From the NCBI RefSeq assembly GCF_000235425.2, contig NZ_KI912266.1:5329217-5393216 (forward strand): 64,000 nt of DNA. Direction: 5' to 3'. The notes under the pieces were generated by a model. The model worked only from the letters and a program-made list of their open reading frames with translations, was not told the DNA's origin and did no database searches. Made by a program: the position numbers and the translations under genes. Shown piece after piece: positions 13,828 to 64,000 of this stretch (position 1 is the stretch's first letter; each line of letters starts with the position of its first letter). The DNA is from Pseudofrankia saprophytica. Its GTDB lineage: Bacteria > Actinomycetota > Actinomycetes > Frankiales > Frankiaceae.

Positions 13828-15153
13828 CTACCTCTTTCCCGCTGCCGCGGCGACGTGCGCGAAACCCTGTTCCAGGTCCCAGATCAGGTCCTCGACGGAC
13901 TCGAGGCCGACCGACAGCCGCACCGTCCCCGGCCCGACGCCGGATGCCCGGAGCTCGTCGTCGCTCAGCTGGCGGTGCGTGGTGCTGGCCGGGTGGATGA
14001 TCAGGCTTTTCGCGTCGCCGACGTTCGCGAGGTGGGACCAGAGCGTCACGCCGCGGATGAGGTCCTGGCCGCCGTCGCGGCCGCCGGCGCAGTCGAACGA
14101 GAACACCGCGCCCGCGCCGCGCGGCAGGTACCTGTCCACCAGCGGGCGGTATTTGCTCGTCGGCAGGCCGGAATAGGTCACGTTGGACGCCAGCTCGTGG
14201 GACTCGAGGAACGCCGCGACCGCCCGGGCGTTCTCGACGTGGCGTTCCATCCGCAGCGACAGCGTCTCGAGCCCCTGCAGGAACAGGAACGCGTTCAGCG
14301 GCGCGAGCGTCGCGCCGAGGTCGCGCAGGGTCTCGGCCCGCAGCTTCATCAGGTAGCCGTAGGTCCCGAACGTCTCGTGGAACCGCAGGCCGTGGTAGGC
14401 CGGCGACGGGTCCGCGATGACGGGAAACCGCCCGTTGGACCAGTCGAAGGTGCCGGCCTCGACGACGACGCCGCCGATGCTCGTGCCGTGGCCGCCGATG
14501 AACTTGGTCGCCGAGTGGATCACGATGTCGGCGCCCCAGTCGATCGGCCGGCACAGGTATGGCGTGGCGAACGTGTTGTCGACGAGGAGCGGCAGCTCGT
14601 GCTCGTGCGCGATGTCCGCCACGGTCCGGATGTCCAGCACGTTCCCGGCGGGGTTGCCGATCGTCTCGCCGAAGAAGGCCTTCGTGTTCGCGCGCACCGC
14701 GCCCCGCCACGCCGCCGGATCGTCCGGATCGACCCACGTCAGCTCGGCGCTCATCTTGCGCAGCAGGTGCTTGAGCTGGTTCACCGTCCCGCCGTAGAGC
14801 GCCGAGGACGAGACGACGTGGTCACCCGGCGCCAGCAGCGTGAACAGCGCGGCCGCCTGCGCGGCGATGCCGCTGGCGAACGCCACCCCGCCGACGCCGC
14901 CCTCGAGGTTCGCCACCCGTTCCTCGAACACCGCGACGGTCGGGTTCATGATGCGCGAGTACGTGTTGCCGTACTCCTGCAGGTTGAAGTACGCGGCCGC
15001 GGACTCCGGGTCCTCGAACACGTAGCTGGTCGTCTGGAAGATCGGCACCGCGCGCGCGCCGGTGTTCGGGTCGGGTCGTTGCCCGGCGTGCAGCTGCCGT
15101 GTCTCGAACCCGAACGCACGAGCTTCCTCGACGCGGGCGGACTGGTCGGTCAC
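13828..15153 (-). CDS. metY: O-acetylhomoserine aminocarboxypropyltransferase (sulfhydrylase)
   Basis: 441 residues, PLP enzyme of the Cys/Met metabolism family. Makes homocysteine from O-acetylhomoserine and sulfide (or methanethiol to methionine). The PLP lysine is in [21 protein letters not shown] and [11 protein letters not shown] are typical MetY motifs. GTG 15153 overlaps the metX stop (GTGA), giving tight coupling with the enzyme that makes its substrate. Confidence 0.96.
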
Positions 15154-16364: not shown

Positions 16365-16367
16365 CGC

Positions 16368-16916: not shown

Positions 16917-16946
16917 GTTGCGTGGCCCCCTCTAGTCCTATTCCCC

Positions 16947-16966
16947 AGATTCCCCGTGGGGATTCT
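16947..16966. promoter_or_regulatory. Inverted repeat between divergent osmC and flavoprotein genes
   Basis: AGATTCCCC-GT-GGGGATTCT, 9-bp arms with one mismatch, in the 72-bp divergent promoter region. Candidate operator for both units; no linked regulator. Confidence 0.45.
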
Positions 16967-16988
16967 CGACAATACACTGGTCAGACGG

Positions 16989-18275: not shown

Positions 18276-18345
18276 CCGCACGTCGTCGACGGCCGAGGCT
18301 CGCGCGTGGCCGCGCACCCGCCCGGATCCCTGCCACGACGCGCGC

Positions 18346-21826: not shown

Positions 21827-21832
21827 GGGAGA

Positions 21833-21862
21833 ATTCTACAAAACCGCTGGTTAAGGTACCTT
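21833..21862 (-). promoter_or_regulatory. Leaderless promoter and palindrome for the leftward sulfonate operon
   Basis: On the minus strand TAGAAT (21838-21833) is followed by 6 bases and GTG. A perfect 10-bp palindrome AAGGTACCTT (21853-21862) lies near the -35 position, flanked by AAAAC and GTTTT almost symmetrically. Likely operator for the divergent pair. Confidence 0.5.
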
Positions 21863-21932
21863 TTCGACAGTTTTCACCCCACGTGTCGCCGCACTCGGCC
21901 GCAGCGCCGAACCCACCACCGGGAGTCGACGC

Positions 21933-28800: not shown

Positions 28801-29758
28801 CGAGGCCGGCGCGCTCCCGCACGGCGAGGGCGAGCTGGCTACCGGCCAGGCCGAGCAGCAGCGGCCAGCCTCCTGTCCAGGCGAGCAGGTCCGCCACCAG
28901 CGGCTCGGGGAGCCCGTCCACCGGGCCGCACAGCAGTTCCCGAGCCTCGTCGTCGGCCATCTGATCGACCAGCAGCGACCGGGCACCGACCGGCAGAACG
29001 CGACGGATGCGGGTGATGACGAGCAGTCCGCAGGCCCGGCCGACGGCCAGGAAGGGGGCGAGCTGGGAGGCCCGCCAGACGTCGTCGACCACAAGCAGCA
29101 CCGGAGGCCGGGCCTCGAGCAGGGCGGCGACCCGGGCCGCGGCCCTGGCTGGGTCGGAGGACCCAGCCGGGGCACCCACCAGGCTGATGGCCAGGTCATC
29201 GAGCAGGGCGGCCAGCGCGGCACCGTGGCGTTCCTCCCCGACCTCGACCCACAGCAGGCCGCCAGGAAACGCCTGACGTACCTCATCGCGGGCACAGACC
29301 GCGGCGGCGAGCGTGGTCTTGCCGAAGCCGCCCTCGCCCTCGATGCCGGTCGTCCTCCCAGCCACCGGGCCGGCCGGGCCCAGCAGCGCCGCGAGCAGCT
29401 CGACCTCCAGCTCCGGGCGAGCGACGACCAGAGCCGGCGGTGGGGGCAGCTGCCAGGGCGGGTCGGGAGCAGGCCCGACGCCCGGCGGCCCGGGCGCGAC
29501 GTCGGAGGCCGTCCCGTTCCCGGTGAACGCGGGATTGTGTGGATAGAGCGCACGAGCCGCGGCGAACAGCCGCGCCTGCCCCTCCTTCATGACACCGGCG
29601 CGCAGCGCCTGGCACACCGCGTCCCAGAACTGCAACGGCGTCGCGGCGTCGAACGGGATGTGGACGTCAGGAAAGCCCGCGAGCCGCAACACGGGCAGAG
29701 CCGCCGCCCGGTCCGGGAATGCGGTGGCAAGCTCGACGGCTGTCAGGCCGTCGTTCAC
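25835..29758 (-). CDS. STAND NTPase: effector-associated-like domain, NB-ARC, WD40 repeats
   Basis: 1307 residues. Residues 1-78 (FPDRAAALPVLRLAGFP...VPFDAATPLQFWDAV) look like the EAD1-type adaptor domains found in bacterial conflict proteins. NB-ARC: P-loop GEGGFGKTT (141-149), Walker B LLVVDDVW, arginine sensor ITRIRR and GGWPLLLGLAG. A helical/winged region follows, then about 16 WD40 blades from residue 600 to the end, one with degenerate His/Trp positions after another. Such proteins sense a ligand through the WD propeller, oligomerise and recruit an effector; a defence or cell-death role is inference. GTG 29758 begins the conserved domain; an ATG at 29836 would add a low-quality extension. 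No effector with a matching EAD is nearby. Confidence 0.87.
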   Translation of the reverse strand: MNDGLTAVELATAFPDRAAALPVLRLAGFPDVHIPFDAATPLQFWDAVCQALRAGVMKEGQARLFAAARALYPHNPAFTGNGTASDVAPGPPGVGPAPDPPWQLPPPPALVVARPELEVELLAALLGPAGPVAGRTTGIEGEGGFGKTTLAAAVCARDEVRQAFPGGLLWVEVGEERHGAALAALLDDLAISLVGAPAGSSDPARAAARVAALLEARPPVLLVVDDVWRASQLAPFLAVGRACGLLVITRIRRVLPVGARSLLVDQMADDEARELLCGPVDGLPEPLVADLLAWTGGWPLLLGLAGSQLALAVRERAGLEQAAAWLLRQLVNDGPATLDVADERDRQFSVRATINASLSQLPEASQRHYLDLGIFPEDTYVPIEVVALLWGRAGDPDGREARRLCDRLVDLSLLRRRWSDDGPRFGLHDVLRAHLRSELGTAGQKAAHAALVAAFRVLVTGADGRGRWWLLPDGPVGDYLTRRLMHHLRAAGLVDEAGALACDPRWIEASIQRTGSSLAVEADLASTGGERAPLFGRVLAGSAHLLTGAPLPGGLGPTLAARLATIPALAAIAESYAESFAHPYLGVVWSTEATSQAQRRVLAGHTDAVTAVAFASDGRLLATGSRDGTARLWNTDSGTESAVLTGHPVWVRDVRFSPDGRLLATLGDDATLRLWKIDRPFESAVLVRHLSSVAAVAFSPDGGLFATAEDGRVRVWEAASGVERAVLVGHVGWVVSVEFSPDGRLLVAGGEDGSVRVWETDSGVERAALTFRGGQARGVMFSPEDGRLLAAADSHGTVWLWDITSGAVRAVPDDSRVQAAEFSPDGRVLATAGGLLEGSVRLWDTAGDAELAGLAGHSRSVRAVVFSRDGRLLATGGDDGTARLWETDRGAELAVLTGHLGAVADVAFSPDGQLLATVSDDRTARLWDVSGDIGRATVPAGLGEVRDVVFRPDGELLVIVSPDATVRLWEARSGIERAAFASHSGGWAAVMASSPSGDLLAIGAEDGTVTLRETADGTERAALNGHTALVISTVFSSDGALLVTAADDNTVRIWETADGAERVVLAFASGPVQVLALSPDGTLLATRQYGGPARLWDTTSGAERAVLGSPDNTGQAVVFSPDGRLVAASGDEDGTVRMWETASCTELAVLVGHAGWVQEVAFSPDSLLVATFGDDDGTARLSETATGVEIAMLTCRLGGVENVVFSPDSRLLATVSDEGIIQLWDTASGVEHAAWAAGRYAAMTFSPDGGLLASTGPEDGTVRLRDVATGTEVTALRVGMNVSGIRWRDDCLCCTTTLGAVLLRCHR

Positions 29759-45719: not shown

Positions 45720-46610
45720 TCAGCCCGCCTGGCCGGCGAGAAAGCGGCTGATCGCGGCGGCGAGCGCGGCCGGCTGCTGTTCCTGGACGTTGTGGCCCGT
45801 CTCGAACTCGACGACCTCGGCCCGCGGCACGCGGGCGCGGAACTCGTCGACGACCTCCGGCGAGAGGAACCCGTACCGCCCGCGGACCAGCAGCACCGGG
45901 ATCGTCGTCGCGTCCAGCCCGGGCCACAGGTCACCGAAGTCGACGCTGAACCGGGCGCCGGGCGGCGGGCTGGCGAAGTGGTGCTTGAACACGACCGTGC
46001 CGTCGTCGCGAACCCGGGTGTTGAGCACCACGCCCCGGGTGAGCGCCGGCCGTGACGAGCCGATGCCGGCGGCGAGGGCCTTCTCGACGATCTCTTCGCG
46101 GGAGCCGAACTCCTGCGGACCGGCGAGGAAGTCGATCACCTGGGCGGCGTCCTCGGGGCGCTGGTTGGGGCTGGCGTCCACGAGGACCAGGCCGCCGACC
46201 AGATCCGGACGCGTCTGCGCCAGGGCGATCGCGGTATGGGCTCCCAGCGACTGGCCCACGACGGTCTGCCGGACGCCCGGCTCGACGGCGTCGAGGACGG
46301 CGGCCACGGCTGTGGCGTTCCGCTGCGGGGAGTAGTCGAAGTCGTCGCGCCACGCCGAGTCGCCGTGGCCCGGCAGGTCGAGGGCGAGAGCCGGCCGGCC
46401 GAGCGCGAGCAGCGTCCCGTCCCAGGTGTGGGCGTTCAGGCCGCCGCCGTGCAGCAGGGTGATCTCCGGCGAGGCACCCCACAGCAGCGCGCTGAGGGCG
46501 CCCTCCGAGGTCGTCACGTCGAGGCGGCGCACCGTCGGAAGCTCGGGCGGGGCGCCCACCTCGGCCGCCTCCTCCGCGAGAAAGTCGAACTCGGCGGGGT
46601 CGTGACCCAT
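45720..46610 (-). CDS. Alpha/beta hydrolase
   Basis: 296 residues. Oxyanion HGGGLNAHTWD, nucleophile GQSLGAHTA, acid region RGRYGFLSPEV and catalytic His in ETGHNVQEQQP. Esterase, lactonase or haloperoxidase-like; substrate unknown. ATG 46610. The 308 bases to the next gene hold only its likely promoter and no further coding frame. Confidence 0.9.
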   Translation of the reverse strand: MGHDPAEFDFLAEEAAEVGAPPELPTVRRLDVTTSEGALSALLWGASPEITLLHGGGLNAHTWDGTLLALGRPALALDLPGHGDSAWRDDFDYSPQRNATAVAAVLDAVEPGVRQTVVGQSLGAHTAIALAQTRPDLVGGLVLVDASPNQRPEDAAQVIDFLAGPQEFGSREEIVEKALAAGIGSSRPALTRGVVLNTRVRDDGTVVFKHHFASPPPGARFSVDFGDLWPGLDATTIPVLLVRGRYGFLSPEVVDEFRARVPRAEVVEFETGHNVQEQQPAALAAAISRFLAGQAG

Positions 46611-46918
46611 CGTCGTCCTCCTGTCGCCGCCCGGTGCACCGACCGATGTCTCGGCTGTCGGCGACCGGCTGCTGAAAACCCTCGTCACGATAACGAACGC
46701 GAGATTCTCGGCACCCTTCTTCCGGCCCGTCCGGCCCCAACTGATAAGCGATCGATACAAACCGTTCACGGAGACAGGTTCGCTGGCAGGCGCGCCGCCG
46801 TCGATGCGCGACGAGGACGGACCCGGCAGTGGTCGAGACCGACCTCGCGACGCCGGCGAGGTCCCACCGCCGGTCACGGGTCGCCCCGGGACGCGCCCGG
46901 CCGCGGGACCTGTCCGGC

Positions 46919-52609: not shown

Positions 52610-53764
52610 TCATCGGGCCACCGCCGTCCGCTGCCCGGCCTCGTCGATGACGGCCGCGGCGTCGGCGGCCTGATTGCCGGCGAAGGCGGGCCGGCCGCCG
52701 TAGGGATCCTGGTCGGTCCACAGCGTGGTCGGCGCCGCCCGCCGGACGACGGGAATCACCTCGGTGGCAAGGCGTTCGAGCATCTCCAGCTGCTGCTCGT
52801 GCGGAATCATGGTGGGCAGGCTGAACGCCTGCAGGTCATGGCCGAACCCGGCATGGAAGTACATGATCTTGTCGATGATCTGCTGCGGGCTGCCGACCAG
52901 CACCGGGCCCTCGGCGATGGCGTGGTCGATGCCATGGAAGATCATCTCGTTGCCCGGGGTGTGGTTGCCGGGTCGGTTGAAGAACTCGACCATCTTCTCG
53001 TAGGTCGGGCCGAAGTGCTCCCGCGCCTGGGCGGTGGTGTCGGCCAGGAAGAGGAAGCCGGCGCCGGCCGCGACATAGCCGTAGCGCGGGTCGTGCCCGT
53101 GCCGCGCGTACTCCTCGCGGTAGTGCTCGATGAGCACCGTGTAGTTGTCGCGGGGCTGGATGGCGTTGGCGCTGAACAGCGGGTCGCCATACCGGCCGGC
53201 GAGCGCGGCGGAGGTCCGGGTGGTGGCCGAGCCGTGCCAGACGCGGGGCGCGCCGGCGTAGGGCCGCGGCAGGGTGGTGGCCTCGTGCAGCGGCGGTCGG
53301 AACCGGCCGGACCACGTGACGTTCTCCTCGCGCCACAGCCGGCGCAGCAGCTCGTACTTCTCGGCGAGCGCATCCCACTGCGTCCCCTGTTCGATGCCGA
53401 ACAGGGGCAGCTGCCGCAGCTCGTTGCCCTTCCCGATGACCAGCTCCAACCGGCCGCGGGAGAGCTGGTCGATGGTGGCGTAGTCCTCGGCCACGCGCAC
53501 CGGATCGAGGATGGACAGCACGCTCACCCCGGTCTGGAGGCGCACGCGCGTCGTGGTCGCCGCGATGGCGCCGAGCAGGACCGTGACACCGGAGGACAGC
53601 ACCGGCCCGGCGTGCCGCTCGCCGATCGCGACCGCGTCCAGGCCCAGCTCCTCGGCGCGCCGGGCGGAGGCCAGCGCCTGCGCGTACCGCTCGGCCGTGC
53701 TGACGAGCCGTCCGGTCACCGGGTTCTGGATGTTCGGCAGGATGTCGAGCACCTGGAATCTCAT
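52610..53764 (-). CDS. LLM-class flavin oxidoreductase, last gene of the sulfonate operon
   Basis: 384 residues. AIGERHAGPVLSSGVTVL, AEDYATIDQLSRGRLELVIGKG, WSGRFRPPLHEATTLPRP and WHGSATTRTSAA; ends with an Ala-rich tail. Follows the NtaA/DszA-like gene by 7 bases, preceded by GTGAGG. Fifth and last leftward gene of the island; convergent with the SnoaL-like gene 6 bases away. Confidence 0.88.
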   Translation of the reverse strand: MRFQVLDILPNIQNPVTGRLVSTAERYAQALASARRAEELGLDAVAIGERHAGPVLSSGVTVLLGAIAATTTRVRLQTGVSVLSILDPVRVAEDYATIDQLSRGRLELVIGKGNELRQLPLFGIEQGTQWDALAEKYELLRRLWREENVTWSGRFRPPLHEATTLPRPYAGAPRVWHGSATTRTSAALAGRYGDPLFSANAIQPRDNYTVLIEHYREEYARHGHDPRYGYVAAGAGFLFLADTTAQAREHFGPTYEKMVEFFNRPGNHTPGNEMIFHGIDHAIAEGPVLVGSPQQIIDKIMYFHAGFGHDLQAFSLPTMIPHEQQLEMLERLATEVIPVVRRAAPTTLWTDQDPYGGRPAFAGNQAADAAAVIDEAGQRTAVAR

Positions 53765-53771
53765 ATGTGCC

Positions 53772-55163
53772 TCACGAGACGTCGTGGGAGGGGGTCACAG
53801 GAGACAGTGCCGAGGCGGCGGGCCAGCGACTGGGTGGTCGCGACAGGCCGAGGTTCTCACGCAGCGTGCGGCCGGTGTACTCGGCACGGAACAGGCCACG
53901 GCGGCGCAGCTCCGGGATCACCAGGGTGGCGAAGTCGTCGAGCGTGTCCGGAAGGTAGGAGAAGACGACGTTGAAGCCGTCCGCGCCGCGGCCCTCGAAC
54001 CATTCCTGGATGTGGTCGGCGATCGTCGCCGGGGTGCCGGCGATGGTCCTGGCGTCGCGGGCGAGCTGTTGGGCGAGCTGGCGGATGGTCAGGCCACCGG
54101 CCCTGGCCCGTTCGACGATCTGGCGCTGGGCGCTCTGGCTCTGGTTGGACGGCGGCAGGTCCGGCAGCGGCCCGTCCAGGGGGTAGGCGGCGAGGTCGAC
54201 GCCACCGAGCCAGTAGGCGAGGTCGGCCAGCGCGATGCGCGGGTCCAGCAGCGAGGTCAGCCGTTCGAGCTTGTCCTCGGCCTCGCCGACCGTGCGCCCC
54301 ACGACCGTCGAGAGGCCGGGCAGCACGACCACCTCATCCGGGTTCCGGCCAGCCGCCTGGGCGCGCGCCTTCAGGTCGGCGTAGAACGCCTGCGCGCCGG
54401 CCAGGTCCGGATGGTGGGTGAACACGACGTCGGCCACCGAGGCGGCGAGCGCGCGGCCGGTCTCCGACGAGCCGGCCTGCACGATCACCGGTCGCCCCTG
54501 CGGGGGACGCGGGATGTTGAGTGGCCCGGCCACCGCGAAGTGCTTCCCACGATGGTCGAGACGGTGCAGCCTGGCCTCGTCGAAGTACATGCCGGTCTTC
54601 TGGTCGTGCAGAAACGCGTCGTCGTCGAAGCTGTCCCACAGGCCGGTCACGACGTCGAAGAACTCGGCCGCACGCTCATAGCGCAGCTCGTGCTCGGGAT
54701 GCTCGTCGAGCCCGAAGTTCTGTGCCTCTGCGTTGTTCAGCGACGTGACGACGTTCCAGCCGGCCCGTCCGCCGCTGATGTGGTCGATGGAGGCGAAGGT
54801 GCGGGCCAGGTGGTAGGGCTCGTTGTAGGTCGTGGAGGCGGTCGCGATCAGCCCGATGTGGCTGGTCGCCGTCGCGAGGGCCGAGATGAGCGTCGTCGGC
54901 TCGAAGGAGTCGTTGACGACCGAGACTCGGCTCAGCACCTCCTGGCTGGTGAACGGCACTCCGACGAGGTCGGCGAAGAAGATGGCGTCGAACTTCGCCC
55001 GCTCGGCGGTTCGCGCCAGCTCGATCACGTGCCGGATGTTCACGCCCGCGTCGGCCACCGTGTTCGGGTGTCGCCAGGCGGCGAGGAACTCCCCCGGCGG
55101 CTTGAGGAACGCGTTCAGGTGCAGCTGACGGGGACGCGGCTGTTCCGGCGACGTGGCGGTCAT
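53772..55163 (-). CDS. NtaA/SnaA/DszA-family FMN-dependent monooxygenase
   Basis: 463 residues. HLNAFLKPPGEFLAAWRHP start, AKFDAIFFADLVG, TYNEPYHLARTFASIDHISGGRAGWN, QAGSSETGRALA and RRRGLFRAEYTGRTLRENLGL end are all diagnostic of the DszA/NtaA family. It uses FMNH2 to open C-S or C-N bonds (dibenzothiophene sulfone, nitrilotriacetate). ATG 55163 overlaps the preceding gene by ATGA. Confidence 0.92.
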   Translation of the reverse strand: MTATSPEQPRPRQLHLNAFLKPPGEFLAAWRHPNTVADAGVNIRHVIELARTAERAKFDAIFFADLVGVPFTSQEVLSRVSVVNDSFEPTTLISALATATSHIGLIATASTTYNEPYHLARTFASIDHISGGRAGWNVVTSLNNAEAQNFGLDEHPEHELRYERAAEFFDVVTGLWDSFDDDAFLHDQKTGMYFDEARLHRLDHRGKHFAVAGPLNIPRPPQGRPVIVQAGSSETGRALAASVADVVFTHHPDLAGAQAFYADLKARAQAAGRNPDEVVVLPGLSTVVGRTVGEAEDKLERLTSLLDPRIALADLAYWLGGVDLAAYPLDGPLPDLPPSNQSQSAQRQIVERARAGGLTIRQLAQQLARDARTIAGTPATIADHIQEWFEGRGADGFNVVFSYLPDTLDDFATLVIPELRRRGLFRAEYTGRTLRENLGLSRPPSRWPAASALSPVTPSHDVS

Positions 55164-56596
55164 CGCGCCACCGCCGCCGCTGCCCCGGCGCCGGCGTCGT
55201 CTTCGGCCCGCTCGACCGGCCGGCCCGCGGGGCGCGGGAGGCCCAGGTGCCCGCGCAGGGTCGCCTCCTCGTACTCGGTACGGAACAGGCCGCGGCGGCG
55301 CAGCTCCGGCACGACCTGGTCGACGAAGTCCTCGGCCGAGCCGGGCAGGTAGGGGAAACTCACGTTGAAGCCGTCGGCGGCCCGGCCGCGGAACCAGCGC
55401 TCGATGTGGTCGGCGACCGTCTCGGGAGTACCGATGACCGACGAGACCGCGGCGAACCGCAGTGCCAGCTGGCGGATCGTCAGGTTCTCCCGGCGGGCGA
55501 GGCCCAGCAGCAGCTCCTGCCGGCTCAGGCTGCGGTTGGTGACGCCGATGTCCGGCACCGGCCCGTCCAGTGGGTAGGAGGACAGGTCCAGGTCGCCGAT
55601 GTTGTCCTGCACCACCCGGCGCGCGACGTCGTCGTGCACCAGCTCCTGCAGCTCGTCGAGCCGGGCGCGCGCCTCGGCCTCGGTGCTCGCGACGTAGGGA
55701 GCGAGCACCGGCCACACCAGCACGTCGTCGGGATCGCGGCCGTACGCCGCCGCCCGCCGCTTGACGTCGGCGTAGAAGTCCCGCGCGCCCGCCAGCGACG
55801 TCTGGGCCGTGAAGATGACCTCGCCGTGGCGGGCGGCGAAGTTCTTGCCGGTCTCCGACGAACCCGCCTGGAAGATCACCGGGTGGCCCTGGGGCGGCCG
55901 GGAGATGTTCAGCGGCCCGCGGACCGTGAAGTGCTCCCCCGCGTGGTGCGGCGGGCGCAGCCCGGCGGGGTCGTAGTAGATGCCGCTGGCGCGGTCGCGG
56001 AGCACCGAGCCGTCGGCGAAGCTGTCCCAGAGCCCGCGGACGACCTCGACGAACTCCTCGGCCCGCCGGTAGCGCAGGGTGTGGTCGAGGTGGGTGTCGC
56101 GGCCGAAGTTGCCCGCCTCCAGCGGGACGACCGACGTCACCACGTTCCAGCCCGCGCGCCCGCCCGACAGATGGTCGAGCGAGGCGAACTTGCGGGCGAC
56201 GTGGAAGGGCTCGTTGTAGGTGGTGGTCGCGGTCGCGACCAGGCCGATCCGTTCCGTCACCGTCGACAGCGCGGCGAGCAGGGTGAGCGGCTCGAAGTGG
56301 TCGGCGCGGGCGGTGCGCCGCAGCGAGTCCAGGTCGTGGCCCCAGACCGCCACCACGTCCGCGAGGAACAGCGCGTCGAAGGTGCCGCGTTCCAGCGTCC
56401 TGGCGAGCCGGATGTGCAGGGGCAGGTCCAGCTGCCCGTCCGGTGGCGACAGCGGATGACGCCAGGCGGCGATGTGCCCACCGGAACCATGCACCAGCGC
56501 CCCGAGCGTCAGCCGTCGGCGCCTGGCGCCATCCGTACGGCCGCGGCCGCCCGTCGGGGACTGCGCCTGGCCGGTCGCCTGCGCCTGGCCGGTCAC
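55160..56596 (-). CDS. NtaA/SnaA/DszA-family FMN-dependent monooxygenase (second copy)
   Basis: 478 residues. Same family as the neighbour: LTLGALVHGSGGHIAAWRHP, TYNEPFHVARKFASLDHLSGGRAGWN, QAGSSETGKNFAARHGE, RRRGLFRTEYEEATLRGHLGL. Has a Gly/Arg-rich N-terminal extension and an Ala/Asp tail. Overlaps both neighbours by ATGA. Two diverged DszA-type enzymes in tandem suggest sequential or alternative substrates. Confidence 0.92.
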   Translation of the reverse strand: MTGQAQATGQAQSPTGGRGRTDGARRRRLTLGALVHGSGGHIAAWRHPLSPPDGQLDLPLHIRLARTLERGTFDALFLADVVAVWGHDLDSLRRTARADHFEPLTLLAALSTVTERIGLVATATTTYNEPFHVARKFASLDHLSGGRAGWNVVTSVVPLEAGNFGRDTHLDHTLRYRRAEEFVEVVRGLWDSFADGSVLRDRASGIYYDPAGLRPPHHAGEHFTVRGPLNISRPPQGHPVIFQAGSSETGKNFAARHGEVIFTAQTSLAGARDFYADVKRRAAAYGRDPDDVLVWPVLAPYVASTEAEARARLDELQELVHDDVARRVVQDNIGDLDLSSYPLDGPVPDIGVTNRSLSRQELLLGLARRENLTIRQLALRFAAVSSVIGTPETVADHIERWFRGRAADGFNVSFPYLPGSAEDFVDQVVPELRRRGLFRTEYEEATLRGHLGLPRPAGRPVERAEDDAGAGAAAAVAR

Positions 56597-57792
56597 AGCG
56601 CGGCCCCGACCACGCCGACAGGGTTCGCCACGACGCCGGGGTCCTTCACCGCGCCGGGGTCCTTCACAGCACCGGCCACCGGCCGGCTCGCCGGGTACCA
56701 GCCCAGCTCGGGAGCGATCTGGGTCGCGATGACCTCCAGGCGGCGCAGGGTCGCGTCGAAGTCGGCGCCGCCGCCGGCCTCACCCTGGACGGCGGCGATG
56801 AAGGTCGAGACGGCGCCGGGACCGACCGGGTTGCGCGCGAGGCTCTCGATGACGGTCTCGACCGGGCCGTGGTGGACGTTCATCGCGTCGAGCGTCGTCA
56901 GGTCGTCCGCGTCCGCGCTCAGCCCGAAGCGGGTGAGGTATCCCCGGTAGCGAGCGATGTCGGCCGCGAGGTCGCGGGCCGCCGCCCGCCGGTCCGGGCC
57001 GGGGAACACACCGTGCGCCGACGCGATCCGTGCCGGTGGCGCGGCGGCCGGCGGCGCGCTGCGCGGCGGCGCCGTTCGCGGCCGCCAGTCGGACCGTTCG
57101 GCGAGATGCTCGGCCTGCTCGACAGCAAGCTGCTCGGCCTCGTGCGCGGCGAGGTAGGCGTCGGCCAGCGGGCGCTGCGCCGTCGCGGCCGGGCCGACCC
57201 CGAGGATCAGGCCGTCACCCGCGCGCGCCGCGCGCCGGGCGCCGTCCGCGCTCGACGTCGAGTCCCACAACCGCCCAGTGAGCGTCGGGGCCGGTGGCTG
57301 CACCCGCAGGGCATCGGTCCCCGCGAGCGGGTCGCCGCCGAGCAGGCCGCGCAGCCGCGCCAGTGCCTCGGCGAACAGCTCGCGGCGTGCCTCGGCGTCC
57401 CGCCCGAAGGCGCCGAACACCGGCGAGCTCGGCCCGCCGGTGCCGAGCCCGAGTTGCAGCCGCCCGCCGCTGAGGGCGTCGAGCACCGCCGCGTCCTCGG
57501 CGAGACGGATCGGGTCCTCCAACGGCAGCACGACCACGGCCGTGCCGAGCTCGATCCGCCGCGTCGCCTGCGCCGCCGCCGCCAGCAGCACGAGCGGCGA
57601 CGGCAGCCGACCGAACTCGGTCTGGAAGTGGTGCTGCGCGACCCAGCCGCTGTCGTAGCCGAGCTCGTCGGCGGCGACGAACAGCTCGACGAGCCGGGGC
57701 AGCAGCTCGCGCGGCTCCTCCCGGCCGAACACGTGGGTCAGGAACCCCAGCCGGAACGGCCGCTCGGCGCCGTCCCCCACGGTCGCGACCAT
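56593..57792 (-). CDS. FMN-dependent luciferase-like monooxygenase (KPN_01858-like)
   Basis: 399 residues. RLGFLTHVFG...LPRLVELFVAADELGYDSGWVAQHHF, AQATRRIELGTAVVVLPLEDPIRLAEDAAVLD and LGLGTGGPSSPVFGAFGR match my recollection of the KPN_01858 family, often found beside ABC transporters. The tail holds a GAVKDP duplication. Second gene of the leftward operon, 59 bases after the SsuD-like gene. Confidence 0.83.
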   Translation of the reverse strand: MVATVGDGAERPFRLGFLTHVFGREEPRELLPRLVELFVAADELGYDSGWVAQHHFQTEFGRLPSPLVLLAAAAQATRRIELGTAVVVLPLEDPIRLAEDAAVLDALSGGRLQLGLGTGGPSSPVFGAFGRDAEARRELFAEALARLRGLLGGDPLAGTDALRVQPPAPTLTGRLWDSTSSADGARRAARAGDGLILGVGPAATAQRPLADAYLAAHEAEQLAVEQAEHLAERSDWRPRTAPPRSAPPAAAPPARIASAHGVFPGPDRRAAARDLAADIARYRGYLTRFGLSADADDLTTLDAMNVHHGPVETVIESLARNPVGPGAVSTFIAAVQGEAGGGADFDATLRRLEVIATQIAPELGWYPASRPVAGAVKDPGAVKDPGVVANPVGVVGAAL

Positions 57793-57851
57793 GATCGATA
57801 TCTCCTTGGAAGTCGGCGGATGGACGAGCGGTCCGAAACGATCGCCAGCCG

Positions 57852-59075
57852 TCAGGCCGGTCTCCCGGCGGGCGCACCGGCGCCGGCGGGAACGGATGGG
57901 ACAGCAACAGGCGGCGACGCGGCCAGCGACGGAGTGGCCGGCGACGGCGGATCGGGTGACGCCAGCAGGCCCCGGGCGCGCAGCAGCGCCGCCGCGCCCT
58001 CAGCCAGCTGGTAGGCCTCCTCCAGGTGCGGCTGGCCGGAGAGGATGAAATGGTCGAGGCCGAGCGCGTGGTACTCCTCGATCCGCTCGGCCACCTGCTC
58101 GTGGCTCCCGACGATCGCCGTGCCCGCGCCGCCGCGCACCAGGCCGTAGCCGGCCCAGACGTTCGGGTACACCTCCAGGCGGGTGCGGTCGCCGCCGTGC
58201 AGGGCCGCCATCCGCCGCTGCCCGACCGACTCGCTCGCGGCGAAGACGGCCTGGTGGGCGGCGATCCGGGCGTCGTCGAGGCCGGCGAGCAGTCGGTCCG
58301 CCTCGGCCCATGCCTCGGCGGCGGTGTCCCGGCTGATGACGTGGAACCGGATGCCGAAGCGCGGGTCACGCTCCCGGCCAGCCGCCGCGGCCAGCGCCCG
58401 CACCCGGTCGAGCCGCTCGGCGATCTGCGCCGGCGTCTCGCCCCAGGCCAGGTAGACGTCGGCGTGCCGGGCGGCGACCCGCTCGGCGGCGGGGCTCGCG
58501 CCGCCGAAGAAGACCGGCGGTGGCCCCCAGGGACTGGCGTCGACGCTCGCGTCCCGGACGTCGTAGTGCGCGCCGGTGAAGTCGAGCGGCGGGCTTGCGC
58601 CGGCGACGCCGCGCAGCACCGTCAGGAACTCGTCGGTACGGGCGTAGCGCTGGTCATGGTCGAGGTGGTCGCCGAACCGGCGCTGCTCGGCCGAGTCGCC
58701 GCCGGTGACGATGTTGAGCAGCAGCCGGCCGTCGGAGACCCGCTGGAAGGTGGCGGCCTGGTGCGCGGCGAGCGTCGGCGAGATCAGCCCCGGCCGGAAG
58801 GCGACCAGGAACCGCAGCCGGGTGGTGACCTGGCTCAGCGCGGCGGTGACGATCCAGGCGTCCTCGCACCACAGCCCGGTCGGGGTGAGCACCGCCTCGT
58901 AGCCAAGCTGCTCGGCGGCCCGGGCGATCTGCCCGAGGTAGCCGACGGTCGGTGCCCGGAACCGCGAGAACCGCGGCGCGCCGTCGGCGCCGTGCCGCGG
59001 CTCGCCATCCCCCGAGCCGACGATGCCCCTGTCGTCGCCGTTGGTCGGCAGGTACCAGTGCAGGTGCAGCGGCAC
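57852..59075 (-). CDS. ssuD: Alkanesulfonate monooxygenase, SsuD family
   Basis: 407 residues. LHLHWYLPTNGDDRG start, FVAFRPGLISPTLAAHQAA, LLLNIVTGGD, and the SsuD C-terminal motif DHFILSGQPHLEEAYQLAE, followed by a Pro/Ala-rich tail. FMNH2-dependent release of sulfite from sulfonates. GTG 59075 has AAGGAG 10 bases upstream. First gene of a five-gene leftward operon divergent from an ABC importer. Confidence 0.92.
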   Translation of the reverse strand: MPLHLHWYLPTNGDDRGIVGSGDGEPRHGADGAPRFSRFRAPTVGYLGQIARAAEQLGYEAVLTPTGLWCEDAWIVTAALSQVTTRLRFLVAFRPGLISPTLAAHQAATFQRVSDGRLLLNIVTGGDSAEQRRFGDHLDHDQRYARTDEFLTVLRGVAGASPPLDFTGAHYDVRDASVDASPWGPPPVFFGGASPAAERVAARHADVYLAWGETPAQIAERLDRVRALAAAAGRERDPRFGIRFHVISRDTAAEAWAEADRLLAGLDDARIAAHQAVFAASESVGQRRMAALHGGDRTRLEVYPNVWAGYGLVRGGAGTAIVGSHEQVAERIEEYHALGLDHFILSGQPHLEEAYQLAEGAAALLRARGLLASPDPPSPATPSLAASPPVAVPSVPAGAGAPAGRPA

Positions 59076-59839
59076 GACGTGTGGTTCTCCTTCGTGACGG
59101 CGGTCGCCCGCGGGGCTGACCTCTGCGCGGGCGCCGGGTGTGGCGGCTGTGGCGGGCGAGCGATGAAGGCAGCCCGGCAATAGCCGTAGGTACGGCACGG
59201 GGCTCGTGGGCGCTGCTGCTGCGGGGGTCGGGGCACGCGCCGGCGGCCGTTTCCCGGCGCGCAGGGAAAGCGGAGTGCCGGCGGGCCCTACCGCGCAAAC
59301 GCGACAGCCGAGCCCAGCACCGGAACGCGCCGAGCGTCGCATCGCGACGCAGGCCCCGTCAACCGCCAGGACGGTTCACTGCGCGATTGCTGCCGAATTG
59401 TTTCTCGCCTTTGACCGCGCCGCCGCGGCGCCGCCAACCGGCACGGAACGGGGCCTGCGACACGGGTCACAGCCTGCCCCGATCGCAACAGCAATGTTGC
59501 ATATCCACCATCCTGGTCGAGATTGTGGGATACGCTGCCGGTCATGCAGCCGCCATCCGTCTCCCGGCGCGGCCCCCGGCCGCTCTGTCGGGGATCGGCG
59601 CAGGTAGCGGTACCACTCACCAGCCGACGCGCGGTCGACCTGATGCGGGTTGCCAGCCGACTCTGTAGCTGAGCCCGCGACCAACCGGCCGTGTGCCCGC
59701 CGCACCCTGGCTGCCGGGCCGCCCGTAATGGCGCCGCACAGGCGTTCAGGGATGCCCTCTTCTCCGGCACGACGAGCCCCATGCGTGCTTTCCAGACGCT
59801 GACGCCAAATCTCCGCCGCCCGGCACGACGAGGTTCCAC
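59076..59839. other. Long divergent control region of the sulfonate island
   Basis: About 760 bp between the ssuD-like gene and the transporter operon with no convincing gene. AT-rich patches near 59390-59410 and 59490-59540 are the likely promoter zone; an inverted repeat lies at 59485-59500. I looked for a SAM riboswitch, a T-box and the RRHVDL-type leader peptide known from actinobacterial sulfur operons and did not find them. Confidence 0.5.
59485..59500. promoter_or_regulatory. Inverted repeat, candidate operator of the divergent sulfonate island
   Basis: GCAACA-GCAA-TGTTGC, perfect 6-bp arms, followed by the AT-rich ATATCC. Roughly midway between the divergent operons. No regulator gene adjoins. 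Confidence 0.45.
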
Positions 59840-59947
59840 ATGTCCCTCTTCGGCGAGTCCCGGCGACGCACCCATATCTCTGCCGCCTTCTTTCGCTCGC
59901 CTTCTCTTCGCCCTTTCGACGATGCCCAAGGAGCACACAGGCCATGA
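59840..59947 (+). CDS. Possible 35-residue leader ORF coupled to the transporter gene
   Basis: ATG 59840 opens MSLFGESRRRTHISAAFFRS and the frame ends at a TGA overlapping the lipoprotein start (ATGA). Position and basic, hydrophobic content resemble short upstream ORFs that couple translation. There is no strong ribosome binding site and the sequence is not a known leader family. Confidence 0.3.
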   Translation: MSLFGESRRRTHISAAFFRSPSLRPFDDAQGAHRP

Positions 59948-61509
59948 AGGTCAGACCCCCCAGGCCGAGGCTGGGTTTCCACCGCCCGCGCCGTTCGCTG
60001 GCGCTGACCGCCGTCGCGGCGGTCGCCGGGCTGGTCCTCGCGGCCTGCGGCGGCGGAACGACCAGCGACGACGGTGGGACGAGCGGGAGCGGCGGCAAGG
60101 GGGCCGACCCGAACGCGACGGTCACCATCGGCCAGGTCCTCGAGCCCGGCACGCTCGACATCACCACGGGCTCCGGCGTCGCCATCGCGCAGGTGCTGCT
60201 CGACAACGTCTACCAGGGGCTGCTGGGGCGTGACGAAAAGGGCAACGTGTCTCCGGAGCTGGCGGAGGACTACAAGGTCTCCGGCGACGGGCTCACCTAC
60301 ACCTTCACCCTCCGCGACGGGGTGACCTTCCACGACGGCACCCCGCTCAAGGCGTCGGACGTGGTCTCGTCGCTGAGCAACGTCATCGCGCCCGGGTCGA
60401 AGAACCCGAACGCCGGCGACCTCGTCTCGCTCGCCTCGGCCTCGGCGCCTGACGACGCGACGGTCGTGCTGAAGCTGAAGAACCGCGACTCGAACTTCCC
60501 CTTCTGGCTCAGCGGCGCCGCCGGCGCGGTGCTCAAGGAAGGGGCGGCGAACCTCGCCAGCACGGCCGTCGGCACGGGGCCGTTCAGGTTCGACTCCTGG
60601 AAGCACGGCGACAGCATCACGCTGGTCCGCAACGACGCCTACTGGGGCGCGAAGGCGAGCGTCGCCAAGGTCGTCTTCCGTTACATCACCGACGTGAACG
60701 CGCAGAACAACGCGGTGAAGACCGGCCAGGTCGACGTCGGCTCGATCCTCGACTCCGACCTGTTGAACAGCTACGAGGGCAACCAGGACTTCGTGATCGC
60801 CAAGGGCGCGTCGACCGACAAGTTCACCCTGGGGTTCAACACCGCCAAGGCCCCGCTGTCCGACGAGCGGGTCCGACACGCGATCCGCCAGGGCATCGAC
60901 AAGGACGGCCTCATCAAGACCTTCGGCCGGGGCATCCGGATCGGCGGCGACGTCCCGCCGCTCGACCCCTGGTACGAGGACCTCACCGGCATCGACAAGT
61001 ACGACCCGGCGAACGCGAAGAAACTGCTCGCCGACGCCGGCCACGCGGGCGGCCTCAGCCTGACGCTGACCATCCCGAACATCTACCCGACCACCATCTC
61101 CGAGTACATCGCCTCACAGCTCAAGGAGATCGGGGTCAACCTGACGATCCGCTCGGTCGAGTTCCCGACCTGGCTGACCGACGTCTTCACCAACCACGAC
61201 TACGACCTGAGCGTCGTCGACCACGCCGAGCCGCGCGACCTCGGCAACTACGCCAAGACGAGCTACTACTGGGGTTACAACAACCCGCAGGCCCAGCAGC
61301 TGTACCAGGCCGGGGTGACCGCGACCACCGACGCCGACCGGGACACCAACTTCAAGGCGCTGGCCAAGCTGATCTCCCAGCAGGCCGTCAGCGACTGGCT
61401 GCTCCTCGGCGAGTCCCTCCAGGTCGCCAGGACCGGCGTCACCGGTTATCCGACGAACAACATCTCGTCGCGCTACGACGCGTCGAAGATCGTCGTCACT
61501 CGCTCGTGA
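59944..61509 (+). CDS. ABC transporter substrate-binding lipoprotein (peptide/opine family)
   Basis: 521 residues. Twin-basic N-terminus, hydrophobic segment and lipobox LVLAACG give an exported, membrane-anchored lipoprotein. SBP_bac_5 fold: DNVYQGLLGRDEKGNVSPELAEDYKVS, TFTLRDGVTFHDGTPLKASDV, RHAIRQGIDKDGLI. Binds a peptide-like or organosulfur ligand outside the cell. ATG 59944 has AAGGAG upstream. Head of the rightward importer operon. Confidence 0.93.
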   Translation: MKVRPPRPRLGFHRPRRSLALTAVAAVAGLVLAACGGGTTSDDGGTSGSGGKGADPNATVTIGQVLEPGTLDITTGSGVAIAQVLLDNVYQGLLGRDEKGNVSPELAEDYKVSGDGLTYTFTLRDGVTFHDGTPLKASDVVSSLSNVIAPGSKNPNAGDLVSLASASAPDDATVVLKLKNRDSNFPFWLSGAAGAVLKEGAANLASTAVGTGPFRFDSWKHGDSITLVRNDAYWGAKASVAKVVFRYITDVNAQNNAVKTGQVDVGSILDSDLLNSYEGNQDFVIAKGASTDKFTLGFNTAKAPLSDERVRHAIRQGIDKDGLIKTFGRGIRIGGDVPPLDPWYEDLTGIDKYDPANAKKLLADAGHAGGLSLTLTIPNIYPTTISEYIASQLKEIGVNLTIRSVEFPTWLTDVFTNHDYDLSVVDHAEPRDLGNYAKTSYYWGYNNPQAQQLYQAGVTATTDADRDTNFKALAKLISQQAVSDWLLLGESLQVARTGVTGYPTNNISSRYDASKIVVTRS

Positions 61510-61600
61510 CGAACCCGTTCGACCACCGGCGGGCGCCGGCCGAGCCATCGTGCCCGGCCGGTGCCCGCCGGGCGTGGGTCGCCCACCGCGAGGCAGCGCC

Positions 61601-62551
61601 ATGGCACTGATCATCCTGCGCCGGCTCGGCCTGTTCGTGCTCTCGCTGCTGGTGGCGAGCGTGCTGGTGTTCCTGCTGCTGCGGCTGCTGCCCGGCAACG
61701 TCGCCCAGGTGATCGCCGGGACCAGGGCGACGCCGGAGCAGGTCGCCCGCATCAGCCACGACCTCGGCACCGACCGGCCGCTGGTCCAGCAGTACCTGAG
61801 CTGGATCGGCGGCGTGCTGACCGGGGACTTCGGCACGTCCGCCCTCAACGGCGTCTCCGTGTCGGACGAGATCGGCGAGAAGCTGGCCGTGACCGCCCCG
61901 CTGGTCGCCGGGGCGACCCTGCTCGCCGCCCTGGTGGGGGTGCCGCTCGGGATCGTCGCCGCGGCCCGCCACCGCGGCCCGGCCGGGCACGCGCTCTCGG
62001 TCGTGAGCCAGCTCGGGATCGCCGTGCCGAGCTTCTGGGTCGGCCTGATGGCGACGACCGTGTTCGCCGTCCACTGGCGCCTGCTGCCCGCCGGCGGGTT
62101 CCCGCGCGACGGCTGGGCGCAGCCGGACACGGCCGTGCGCTCGCTGGTGCTGCCGGTGCTCACCCTGGCGCTGCTGGAGGGCGCGGTGCTGCTGCGGTTC
62201 ACGCGCTCGGCGACGCTGGAGGTGCTGCACGCCGACTACATCCGCACCGCGAGGGCGAAGGGCCTGACCAGGGGCAGGGCGCTGGTGCGCCACGGGGTCC
62301 GCAACGCCGCGCTGCCGGTGCTCAGCGTGCTCGGCCTGGAGTTCGCCAGCCTGCTGCTGGGCGCGGTCGTGATCGAGAACGTCTTCGCGCTACCGGGCAT
62401 CGGCCAGATGCTCATCGTCGACGTCGGCAACCGCGACCTGCTGAAGGTGCAGGGCACGGTCCTGCTGGTCGCCGTCGCCGTGCTCGTCGTCAGCTTCCTC
62501 GTCGACCTGGGCCACCGCCTGCTCGACCCGCGGCTACGGGAGGCCCGGTGA
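61601..62551 (+). CDS. ABC transporter permease (DppB-like)
   Basis: 316 residues, about six membrane segments beginning LRRLGLFVLSLLVASVLVFLLLRLLPG in order, and the EAA-type loop DYIRTARAKGLTRGRALVRHGVRNA. Forms the channel with the next permease. ATG 61601 chosen over an upstream frame. 91 bases after the lipoprotein gene. Confidence 0.94.
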   Translation: MALIILRRLGLFVLSLLVASVLVFLLLRLLPGNVAQVIAGTRATPEQVARISHDLGTDRPLVQQYLSWIGGVLTGDFGTSALNGVSVSDEIGEKLAVTAPLVAGATLLAALVGVPLGIVAAARHRGPAGHALSVVSQLGIAVPSFWVGLMATTVFAVHWRLLPAGGFPRDGWAQPDTAVRSLVLPVLTLALLEGAVLLRFTRSATLEVLHADYIRTARAKGLTRGRALVRHGVRNAALPVLSVLGLEFASLLLGAVVIENVFALPGIGQMLIVDVGNRDLLKVQGTVLLVAVAVLVVSFLVDLGHRLLDPRLREAR

Positions 62552-63597
62552 GTGGGCCCGGCAGGGCCGCCGGTGGGGCGCGGTTCGCCCTGGGGGCGGT
62601 GGCGACGGCGCGGGCGGTGCTGCGCACCCGGTCCGGGCGGCTGGGTGCCGCCCTGTCCAGCCTGATCGTGATCGCGGCGGTGGTGTCACTGCTGTGGACC
62701 CCGTACGACCCGACCCAGGTCAAACCGGCCGACTCGTGGGCGCCTATGTCCGGCCGTCACTGGCTGGGCGCGGACCGGCTCGGCCGCGACCTGTTCAGCC
62801 AGCTGCTCGTCGGCTCCCAGATCACGCTGGTCGTCGCCGTAGGAGCCACCGCGCTGGCGGCGATCGTCGGCCTCACGCTGGCGCTGCTCGCGACCGTGAC
62901 CCCACGGGTCGTCGGCGAGGGGTTCGTGTACCTCATCGACATCCTGCTTGCCTTCCCGATGCTGCTGCTCGCGCTGGTCCTGGCGGCCGTCTTCCCGGGC
63001 CACGCCTGGACGACGGTGGTCGCGCTCGGCATCGGGATCGGCATCCAGGTCGGCCGGGTCACCCGCGGCGAGATCAACCGGGTGCTGGCCACCGACTTCG
63101 TGCTGGCCGCCCGGGCCGCCGGCGCCGGGACCTGGCGGATCATTTCCCGCCACCTGCTGCCGAACGCCATGCCGACGCTCTACGTCCAGCTCTCCCTGTC
63201 GGCGGGGATCGCGGTGCTCGCCGAGGCCGCGCTGTCCTACCTCGGCCTGGGCACCCCGCCGCCGACGCCGTCCTGGGGCCGCAGCCTGCACGAGCTGCAG
63301 GCCTACCTGACGTTGCGTCCGCTGGTGCTGCTCTGGCCCGGTCTCGCCGTCGTGCTGACCGTCCTCGGCTTCAACCTGCTCGGCGACGGCCTGCGTGAGG
63401 CCGCCGACCCGCGCCTGCGGTTCCCGACCCGCGCCGTGCCTGACGCGGCCGTGCCTGACCTGGCCTCGTCCGCCGCGCCGCCCAGTCCTGCCGCGCCCGG
63501 TTCCACCACGCCCAGTTCCGCCGCAGCCGGTCTTGCCGCGCCCGGTCCTGCCGCGCTTGGGTCGCGAGCGCTCGGTCCGCTGGACGGTGCGCGGTGA
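62548..63597 (+). CDS. ABC transporter permease (DppC-like) with low-complexity tail
   Basis: 349 residues. RSGRLGAALSSLIVIAAVVSLL first segment, HWLGADRLGRDLFSQLL, EAA loop DFVLAARAAGAGTWRIISRHLLPN. The last 55 or so residues are an Ala/Pro/Ser tail encoded by imperfect 15-bp repeats (63470-63560), unusual for this family and probably cytoplasmic. GTG 62548 overlaps the preceding stop (GTGA). Confidence 0.93.
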   Translation: MSGPGRAAGGARFALGAVATARAVLRTRSGRLGAALSSLIVIAAVVSLLWTPYDPTQVKPADSWAPMSGRHWLGADRLGRDLFSQLLVGSQITLVVAVGATALAAIVGLTLALLATVTPRVVGEGFVYLIDILLAFPMLLLALVLAAVFPGHAWTTVVALGIGIGIQVGRVTRGEINRVLATDFVLAARAAGAGTWRIISRHLLPNAMPTLYVQLSLSAGIAVLAEAALSYLGLGTPPPTPSWGRSLHELQAYLTLRPLVLLWPGLAVVLTVLGFNLLGDGLREAADPRLRFPTRAVPDAAVPDLASSAAPPSPAAPGSTTPSSAAAGLAAPGPAALGSRALGPLDGAR

Positions 63598-64000
63598 GCG
63601 CGCCGAACGAGCCGCTCTTGCGGGTCAGCGACCTGCGGGTTCGCATCGGCGGCGTGCCCGTCGTCGACGGAGTCGACTTCCAGGTGGACGCCGGCGAACG
63701 GGTCGGGCTGATCGGCGAGTCCGGATCAGGCAAGTCGCTGACGGCGCTCGCGGTCCTCGGCCTGCTGCCCGAGGCGGCGACGGTCAGCGGCAGCGTCCGC
63801 CTCGCCGGCGCGGAGCTGATCGGCCGCTCCGACCGGGAGCTGTCCCGAATCCGGGGCAACGAGATCGCGATGGTCTTCCAGGAGCCGCTGACCGCGCTCA
63901 ACCCGCTGATGCGGATCGGCCGGCAGATCGGCGAGCCGCTGCGCATCCACCGTGGGCTGTCCCGCCGCGCCGCCGACGCGGCGGCCGTGGAGCTCGCCGA
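63594..64000 (+). CDS. ABC transporter ATP-binding protein (DppD/DppF-like), cut by window end
   Basis: First 135 codons: Walker A GESGSGKS, Q-loop VFQEPLTALNP and the typical MRIGRQIGEPLRIH stretch. GTG 63594 overlaps the permease stop (GTGA). It powers the importer; the Walker B and signature motifs lie beyond base 64000. A second ATPase or a two-NBD fusion is likely to follow. Confidence 0.93.
   Translation, partial: MSAPNEPLLRVSDLRVRIGGVPVVDGVDFQVDAGERVGLIGESGSGKSLTALAVLGLLPEAATVSGSVRLAGAELIGRSDRELSRIRGNEIAMVFQEPLTALNPLMRIGRQIGEPLRIHRGLSRRAADAAAVELA

What the first reader, a model, noticed from the sequence alone, without database searches (positions are those of the whole stretch)
52610..64000. 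Divergent island: five LLM monooxygenases facing an ABC importer
A leftward, mostly overlapping five-gene operon (SsuD-like, KPN_01858-like, two NtaA/DszA-type, one LLM) faces a rightward peptide-type importer across about 870 bp. It reads like a complete uptake and C-S/C-N cleavage pathway, but the substrate is not a classical sulfonate because the importer is of the SBP_bac_5 type, not SsuABC. Two DszA-like enzymes in tandem point to a multi-step degradation that may be undescribed.
Basis: partly seen in the sequence, partly recalled or inferred. Interest (0 to 1): 0.6.

Follow-up and report, generated by a model that had tools for sequence, protein, structure and literature searches.

The report
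Importer and flavin-enzyme organosulfur scavenging module
In a Frankia-like soil actinomycete, a peptide-type importer faces five flavin-dependent oxygenases; related bacteria carry the importer and several of the oxygenases in a single operon, most likely to take up an unidentified organic sulfur compound and strip out its sulfur, a known type of pathway with an uncharacterised substrate.

Summary
Five LLM genes (52610-59075, leftward) face an Opp/Dpp-type importer across 868 bp. The importer continues past the window edge to 65443, so both ATPases lie wholly or partly outside. The two arms belong together: in Frankia and Galbitalea (and, without the NtaA pair, Protofrankia and Amycolatopsis) the whole importer and orthologs of LLM2, LLM3 and LLM4 form one co-directional operon. 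An importer permease lies near LLM2 relatives in 7/8 close and 18/28 distant loci, against 0/20 control loci. The tandem NtaA/DszA-type pair is two old, separate lineages. MetY (O-acetylhomoserine sulfhydrylase) adjoins the operon in three families, LLM1 keeps the sulfonate-binding residues of MsuD, and a TauD-type dioxygenase and an alpha/beta-hydrolase sit inside the ortholog cluster. The best reading is organosulfur scavenging ending in sulfite or sulfide. The substrate is unknown, and no flavin reductase is encoded nearby. An SBP_bac_5 importer does not exclude a sulfonate: that fold binds glutathione, opines and EDTA among others, and EDTA uptake (EppABCD plus EmoA) already pairs this importer type with an NtaA-type enzyme. 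NCBIfam already holds a putative SBP/LLM pair (TIGR04028/TIGR04027), whose cut-offs are not met here.

The parts
57852..59075 (-). LLM1, SsuD-like FMNH2-dependent monooxygenase; first gene of the leftward operon
   Evidence: keeps MsuD W195/R225/R296/A299 equivalents, Y330 replaced by Gln
56593..57792 (-). LLM2, KPN_01858-like LLM, the most conserved partner of the importer
55160..56596 (-). LLM3, NtaA/DmoA-family monooxygenase
53772..55163 (-). LLM4, NtaA/DmoA-family monooxygenase, 53% identical to LLM3
52610..53764 (-). LLM5, CE1758/2I7G-type LLM; last gene of the operon, accessory (seen in the module only in this genome and F. nepalensis)
59944..61509 (+). SBP_bac_5 lipoprotein (substrate-binding protein)
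   Evidence: orthologs 60-80% identical in ten Frankiaceae genomes
61601..62551 (+). importer permease B (DppB/OppB type)
62548..63597 (+). importer permease C (DppC/OppC type), GTG start overlapping permease B
63594..64000 (+). importer ATPase D (DppD type), cut by the window edge; gene runs to 64481, followed by ATPase F 64478-65443 outside the window
59523..59553 (.). 31-bp block in the divergent intergenic region, conserved in two relatives; possible shared promoter or operator
45720..46610 (-). alpha/beta-hydrolase, accessory: its ortholog directly follows LLM5 in F. nepalensis (85%) and precedes MetY-importer-LLM2-3-4 in Galbitalea (55%)
13828..15153 (-). MetY (O-acetylhomoserine sulfhydrylase), distant here but a homolog adjoins the importer operon in Frankia, Galbitalea and Amycolatopsis

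Best explanation
A sulfur-scavenging module. The lipoprotein 59944-61509 captures an organosulfur compound and the DppBCDF-type ABC transporter imports it (inferred from family). In the cytoplasm the FMNH2-dependent monooxygenases oxidise it stepwise and cleave C-S bonds (inferred). The conserved LLM2 plus the NtaA-type pair LLM3/LLM4 would work on the imported scaffold, and the SsuD-like LLM1 would release sulfite from a sulfonate intermediate. LLM5, a TauD-type dioxygenase (66977-67765) and an alpha/beta-hydrolase (45720-46610) would broaden the range. FMNH2 would come from an unlinked reductase. Sulfite would be reduced to sulfide and fixed by MetY. That the importer and LLM2/3/4 belong together is shown by comparative genomics; the sulfur chemistry and the exact substrate are inferred.
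For: One operon SBP-B-C-D-F-LLM2-LLM3-LLM4 in five Frankia genomes and in Galbitalea (Microbacteriaceae), and SBP-B-C-D-F-LLM2 in Protofrankia, Frankia CiP1 and Amycolatopsis. An importer permease lies within 10 kb of LLM2 relatives in 7/8 close and 18/28 distant loci against 0/20 control loci. MetY is directly adjacent or one gene away in Frankia, Galbitalea and Amycolatopsis. LLM1 keeps the sulfonate-binding residues of MsuD. In F. nepalensis CN7 a TauD-type dioxygenase, 90% identical to the one beside the window importer, lies between LLM4 and LLM5. SfnB scores above the NCBIfam cut-off, and MetX, MetY, SfnG-like and SsuD-like genes lie 30-45 kb away in the same window. In Acinetobacter one reductase powers many such monooxygenases, so an unlinked reductase is plausible (PMC13352529).
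Against: No expression data, no sulfur-regulatory site and no riboswitch. The SBP fits no sulfur-specific family; its best structural matches include opine, signal-molecule, peptide, cysteine and glutathione binders. LLM3's nearest solved relative is a carbon hydroxylase of antibiotic biosynthesis. LLM1 has lost MsuD Tyr330 (Gln here, His in Frankia). No flavin reductase is clustered.
Confidence: 0.7

Rival explanations
1. An aminopolycarboxylate or other C-N substrate pathway like EDTA uptake by EppABCD with EmoA: the SBP binds a chelator and the NtaA-type pair removes carboxymethyl groups as glyoxylate, supplying nitrogen and carbon.
For: Same architecture: an NikA/DppA/OppA-fold binding protein with an NtaA-type FMNH2 monooxygenase whose genes are co-located (PMC7312458). 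LLM3 and LLM4 are NtaA/DmoA-family members.
Against: LLM3/LLM4 score clearly higher with YtnJ and the DszA/BdsA structures than with EDTA monooxygenase (371-397 and 322-332 bits against 236-259). EppA is not among the best-scoring solved relatives of the SBP. SsuD with a sulfonate motif, MetY and TauD do not fit. No iminodiacetate-oxidase-type gene was seen.
Confidence: 0.12
2. Import and oxidative breakdown of a plant or microbial small molecule (opine, peptide or aromatic) as carbon source, with sulfur release incidental.
For: The best structural matches of the SBP include opine-binding AgaA and the signal-binding AapF. LLM3 resembles the carbon hydroxylase NtfO2. An alpha/beta-hydrolase is linked.
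Against: Recurrent MetY linkage and SsuD; no catabolic dehydrogenase or CoA genes are conserved in the core operon.
Confidence: 0.13
3. Chance neighbourhood in an LLM-rich island: importer and LLMs are independently regulated with unrelated roles.
For: The genome has 108 LLM matches and 15 lie in this 58-kb stretch.
Against: Conserved single operons in relatives from three families, and 0/20 control loci.
Confidence: 0.03

Closest known systems
NCBIfam pair TIGR04028 (KPN_01854 SBP) and TIGR04027 (KPN_01858 LLM), both 'hypothetical equivalog'
   Same: An SBP_bac_5 importer paired with a KPN_01858-like LLM (that the two models form a pair is from memory); LLM2's best family is TIGR04027.
   Different: LLM2 scores 224.6 against a 412.9 cut-off; the SBP scores only 66 bits with TIGR04028 (468.5 cut-off). 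The neighbouring second importer is closer (348.8 bits).
EppABCD plus EmoA, EDTA uptake and oxidation in Chelativorans BNC1
   Same: NikA/DppA-fold SBP and ABC importer with a co-located NtaA-type monooxygenase (PMC7312458).
   Different: It has a dedicated flavin reductase, EmoB; LLM3/LLM4 are not closest to EmoA; here SsuD, KPN and CE1758 types are added.
ssu/seu sulfonate and sulfonate-ester genes of Corynebacterium glutamicum
   Same: Several FMNH2 monooxygenases of SsuD and (from memory) DszA type used together; MetY and ssuD1 are in one McbR regulon (PMC2580772).
   Different: From memory it uses an SsuABC importer and a clustered reductase SsuI; direct sequence comparison was not done.
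DMS, sulfone and methanesulfonate pathway (Dms1-3, SfnG, MsuC, MsuD/SsuD) in Acinetobacter and Pseudomonas
   Same: A cascade of two-component monooxygenases ending in sulfite, with one shared reductase (PMC13352529).
   Different: No Opp-type importer is part of it; SfnB/DszC-type enzymes are absent from this operon, though they occur 30 kb away in the window.
YtnJ (CmoJ) cysteine-salvage monooxygenase of Bacillus subtilis
   Same: Among the highest-scoring solved relatives of LLM4 (397 bits).
   Different: Its importer type and acetyltransferase/deacetylase neighbours (from memory) are not found here.

Membership tests
NtaA/DmoA-family FMN-dependent monooxygenase (TIGR03860): LLM3, LLM4 | score over curated cut-off 279.7 | tested here: met
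   558.5 and 572.0 bits, full profile covered
FMNH2-dependent alkanesulfonate monooxygenase SsuD (TIGR03565): LLM1 | score over curated cut-off 518.2 | tested here: not met
   426.9 bits; PRK00719 435.6 against 510
SsuD/MsuD sulfonatase: LLM1 | sulfonate-binding residues W195, R225, R296, A299 of MsuD | tested here: met
   all four equivalents present, but Y330 is Gln
KPN_01858 LLM (TIGR04027): LLM2 | score over curated cut-off 412.9 | tested here: not met
   224.6 bits; Frankia, Galbitalea, Pseudomonas and Mycobacterium relatives also fall short at 218-257
KPN_01854 SBP (TIGR04028): importer SBP | score over curated cut-off 468.5 | tested here: not met
   66 bits
CE1758 LLM (TIGR04036): LLM5 | score over curated cut-off 479.1 | tested here: not met
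   257.2 bits
SBP_bac_5 / cluster C binding protein | PF00496 over cut-off and cluster-C fold | tested here: met
   278.4 bits; model matches cluster-C structures, TM 0.65-0.78, mean pLDDT only 72
EppABCD-EmoA EDTA system | EmoA-type enzyme plus EmoB reductase plus EppA | tested here: not met
   no reductase in the window; EmoA ranks below YtnJ, NtfO2 and the DszA/BdsA structures; EppA not among the best solved relatives
SsuEADCB alkanesulfonate system | SsuABC importer and SsuE reductase adjacent | tested here: not met
   the importer is Opp type, no reductase nearby
C. glutamicum seuABC sulfonate-ester genes | orthology of the monooxygenases to SeuA/B/C | not tested
   sequences were not at hand; the original paper is not held
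Sulfur-starvation regulon | induction by sulfate limitation | not testable with these tools
   no expression data available

The most novel reading that the evidence does not exclude
An undescribed scavenging pathway for a zwitterionic or peptide-like organosulfur compound, for example an S-conjugate or thioether: captured by a dedicated Opp-type importer and dismantled by a conserved cascade of KPN-type and two NtaA-type monooxygenases, with MetY as the sulfide sink, shared by Frankiaceae, Microbacteriaceae and Amycolatopsis.
Probability: 0.35. Interest if true: 0.6.

Novelty: new variant of a known kind. Interest (0 to 1): 0.4.

Why it matters
Most soil sulfur is organic, and Frankia-like bacteria live with plants. 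A conserved importer plus oxygenase operon with unknown substrate is a concrete, testable gap: knocking it out in a laboratory Frankia or Galbitalea strain, or assaying the purified binding protein, could assign a role to relatives of two putative NCBIfam families and to a tandem NtaA-type pair. The pathway type itself is known.

Tried and rejected
Riboswitches or other Rfam RNAs in the window and in twelve related loci: only tRNAs in three of the loci. Sigma-70 and terminator consensus in the intergenic region: none. A flavin reductase in the cluster: none; tblastn of four of the genome's reductases against the related loci hit only three. The 31-bp intergenic block in Frankia, Galbitalea and Amycolatopsis upstream regions: best matches 16-19/31, so it is conserved only in the close relatives. 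A heterodimer of the NtfO1/NtfO2 type for LLM3/LLM4: both are full length, and LLM3 keeps a stretch that NtfO2 lacks in the alignment, so not favoured. Substrate from the SBP model: too low confidence at the pocket (residues 334-348 and 428-432 under pLDDT 50). SBP homologs of 37-40% identity in other families: in the two loci read widely enough (L075, L076) they are not in LLM operons, so the coupling is limited to the closer clade.

Full report
Where it lies. The window is bases 5329217-5393216 of the 8.19-Mb contig of a 9.98-Mb genome in two contigs.

The observation. Five leftward LLM genes occupy 52610-59075 and a rightward Opp/Dpp-type importer begins at 59944; the gap is 868 bp. Family scans confirm SsuD-like, KPN_01858-like, two NtaA/DmoA-family and one CE1758-like enzyme, but only the NtaA-type pair passes its curated cut-off. 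Two of four junctions overlap by 4 bp, and permease B, permease C, ATPase D and ATPase F are chained by 4-bp overlaps, the last gene ending at 65443 outside the window. LLM genes are abundant in this genome (108 matches), but the 58 kb from about 19.7 kb to 77.7 kb in window coordinates holds 15, the densest place on the main contig, with 0.7 expected.

Do the two arms belong together? Yes. A search of 58 relatives with the SBP found ten orthologs of 60-80% identity in the same family; only one of the seven other genomes of the genus has it. Their neighbourhoods show SBP-B-C-D-F-LLM2-LLM3-LLM4 as one co-directional run in five Frankia genomes, LLM4-LLM3-LLM1 divergent from the importer in a sixth, SBP-to-LLM2 runs in two more, and the SsuD divergent from the importer in the one same-genus genome, where the contig ends. 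A scan of named genomes with an LLM2 alignment extended this to Galbitalea (hydrolase-MetY-SBP-B-C-D-F-LLM2-LLM3-LLM4, all one strand) and Amycolatopsis (2OG oxygenase-MetY-hydrolase-SBP-B-C-D-F-LLM2) (the 2OG oxygenase and the Amycolatopsis hydrolase were named by eye). Permeases occur within 10 kb in 7 of 8 close and 18 of 28 distant LLM2 loci, none of 20 control loci; NtaA-type genes in 5/8, 23/28 and all 16 Pseudomonas-group loci, none of 20 controls. The controls are the weakest hits of the same scan, LLMs of other kinds, so they are a convenience set and not a random sample. In F. nepalensis the order is LLM2-LLM3-LLM4-TauD-LLM5-hydrolase; the TauD is 90% and the hydrolase 85% identical to genes at 66977-67765 and 45732-46613 of this genome. 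These are therefore probable accessory members scattered around the island here.

The NtaA pair. LLM3 and LLM4 are 53% identical. In a tree of 68 sequences each forms its own clade with a Galbitalea member (support 100/99 and 100/100), and the Pseudomonas enzymes join the LLM3 side with weaker support (87/84). The pair is old and its members probably do different steps. Among solved proteins LLM4 is near NtfO2 (403 bits) and YtnJ (397), and LLM3 is nearest NtfO2 (532), a hydroxylase in a polyketide pathway; the DszA/BdsA structures score 322-332 and EDTA monooxygenase 236-259. 'DszA-like' is therefore a loose label.

Why sulfur. MetY is next to the operon, or one gene away, in three families. 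LLM1 keeps the MsuD residues that hold the sulfonate, W195, R225, R296 and A299, but has Gln for Tyr330 (His in Frankia). A TauD-type enzyme is linked. The same window holds MetX, MetY, an SfnB above its curated cut-off, SfnG-like and SsuD-like genes at 13.8-23.2 kb; taurine dioxygenase, sfnB and SfnG were among the genes raised in a Gordonia growing on dibenzothiophene (PMC11852219). None of this is proof: there is no expression evidence.

What the importer says. The SBP is a cluster-C protein; its structural neighbours bind opines, a signal molecule, peptides, cysteine and glutathione, and EppA of the same fold binds EDTA (PMC7312458).

Flavin supply. No flavin reductase of the two main families lies in the window; the nearest is about 61 kb past its end. 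In Acinetobacter one reductase serves at least eight such monooxygenases (PMC13352529), so this is not a fatal gap, but 'complete pathway' is too strong.

Verdict. A real, conserved importer-oxygenase module, most likely for organosulfur scavenging, with unknown substrate. It is a variant of known systems rather than a new kind.

Noticed in passing
window 13828-23189: A second sulfur sub-cluster: MetY, MetX, OsmC, flavin monooxygenase, SfnB (above cut-off), SfnG-like, SsuD-like and an SfnB-like gene.
   Followed up: partly
L031:13288-19897 and L033:233-3006: A second Opp-type importer with fused ATPase and a TIGR04028-like SBP (348.8 bits, below cut-off), next to an NtaA-type, an NtaA-like and an MsnO8-type LLM; the MsnO8-type gene recurs near the module in Frankia and F. 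nepalensis.
   Followed up: partly
L083-L096, L098, L102, L103 (Pseudomonas and Stutzerimonas): A related cluster NtaA-(SurE-like)-KPN-KPN-LLM-SsuD; read in full in L083, where a probable sigma-54 activator and TonB receptors flank it and an SBP_bac_5 gene lies at the far end (identified by eye, not by family scan).
   Followed up: partly
window 59523-59553: 31-bp block conserved in the divergent intergenic region of two relatives; it contains a GCTGC...GCAGC inverted repeat.
   Followed up: partly
window 25835-29758: A large WD40-repeat protein (1307 aa) inside the LLM-rich stretch.
   Followed up: no
L031:9077-10522: A TIR-domain protein with tetratricopeptide repeats just right of the module.
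   Followed up: no
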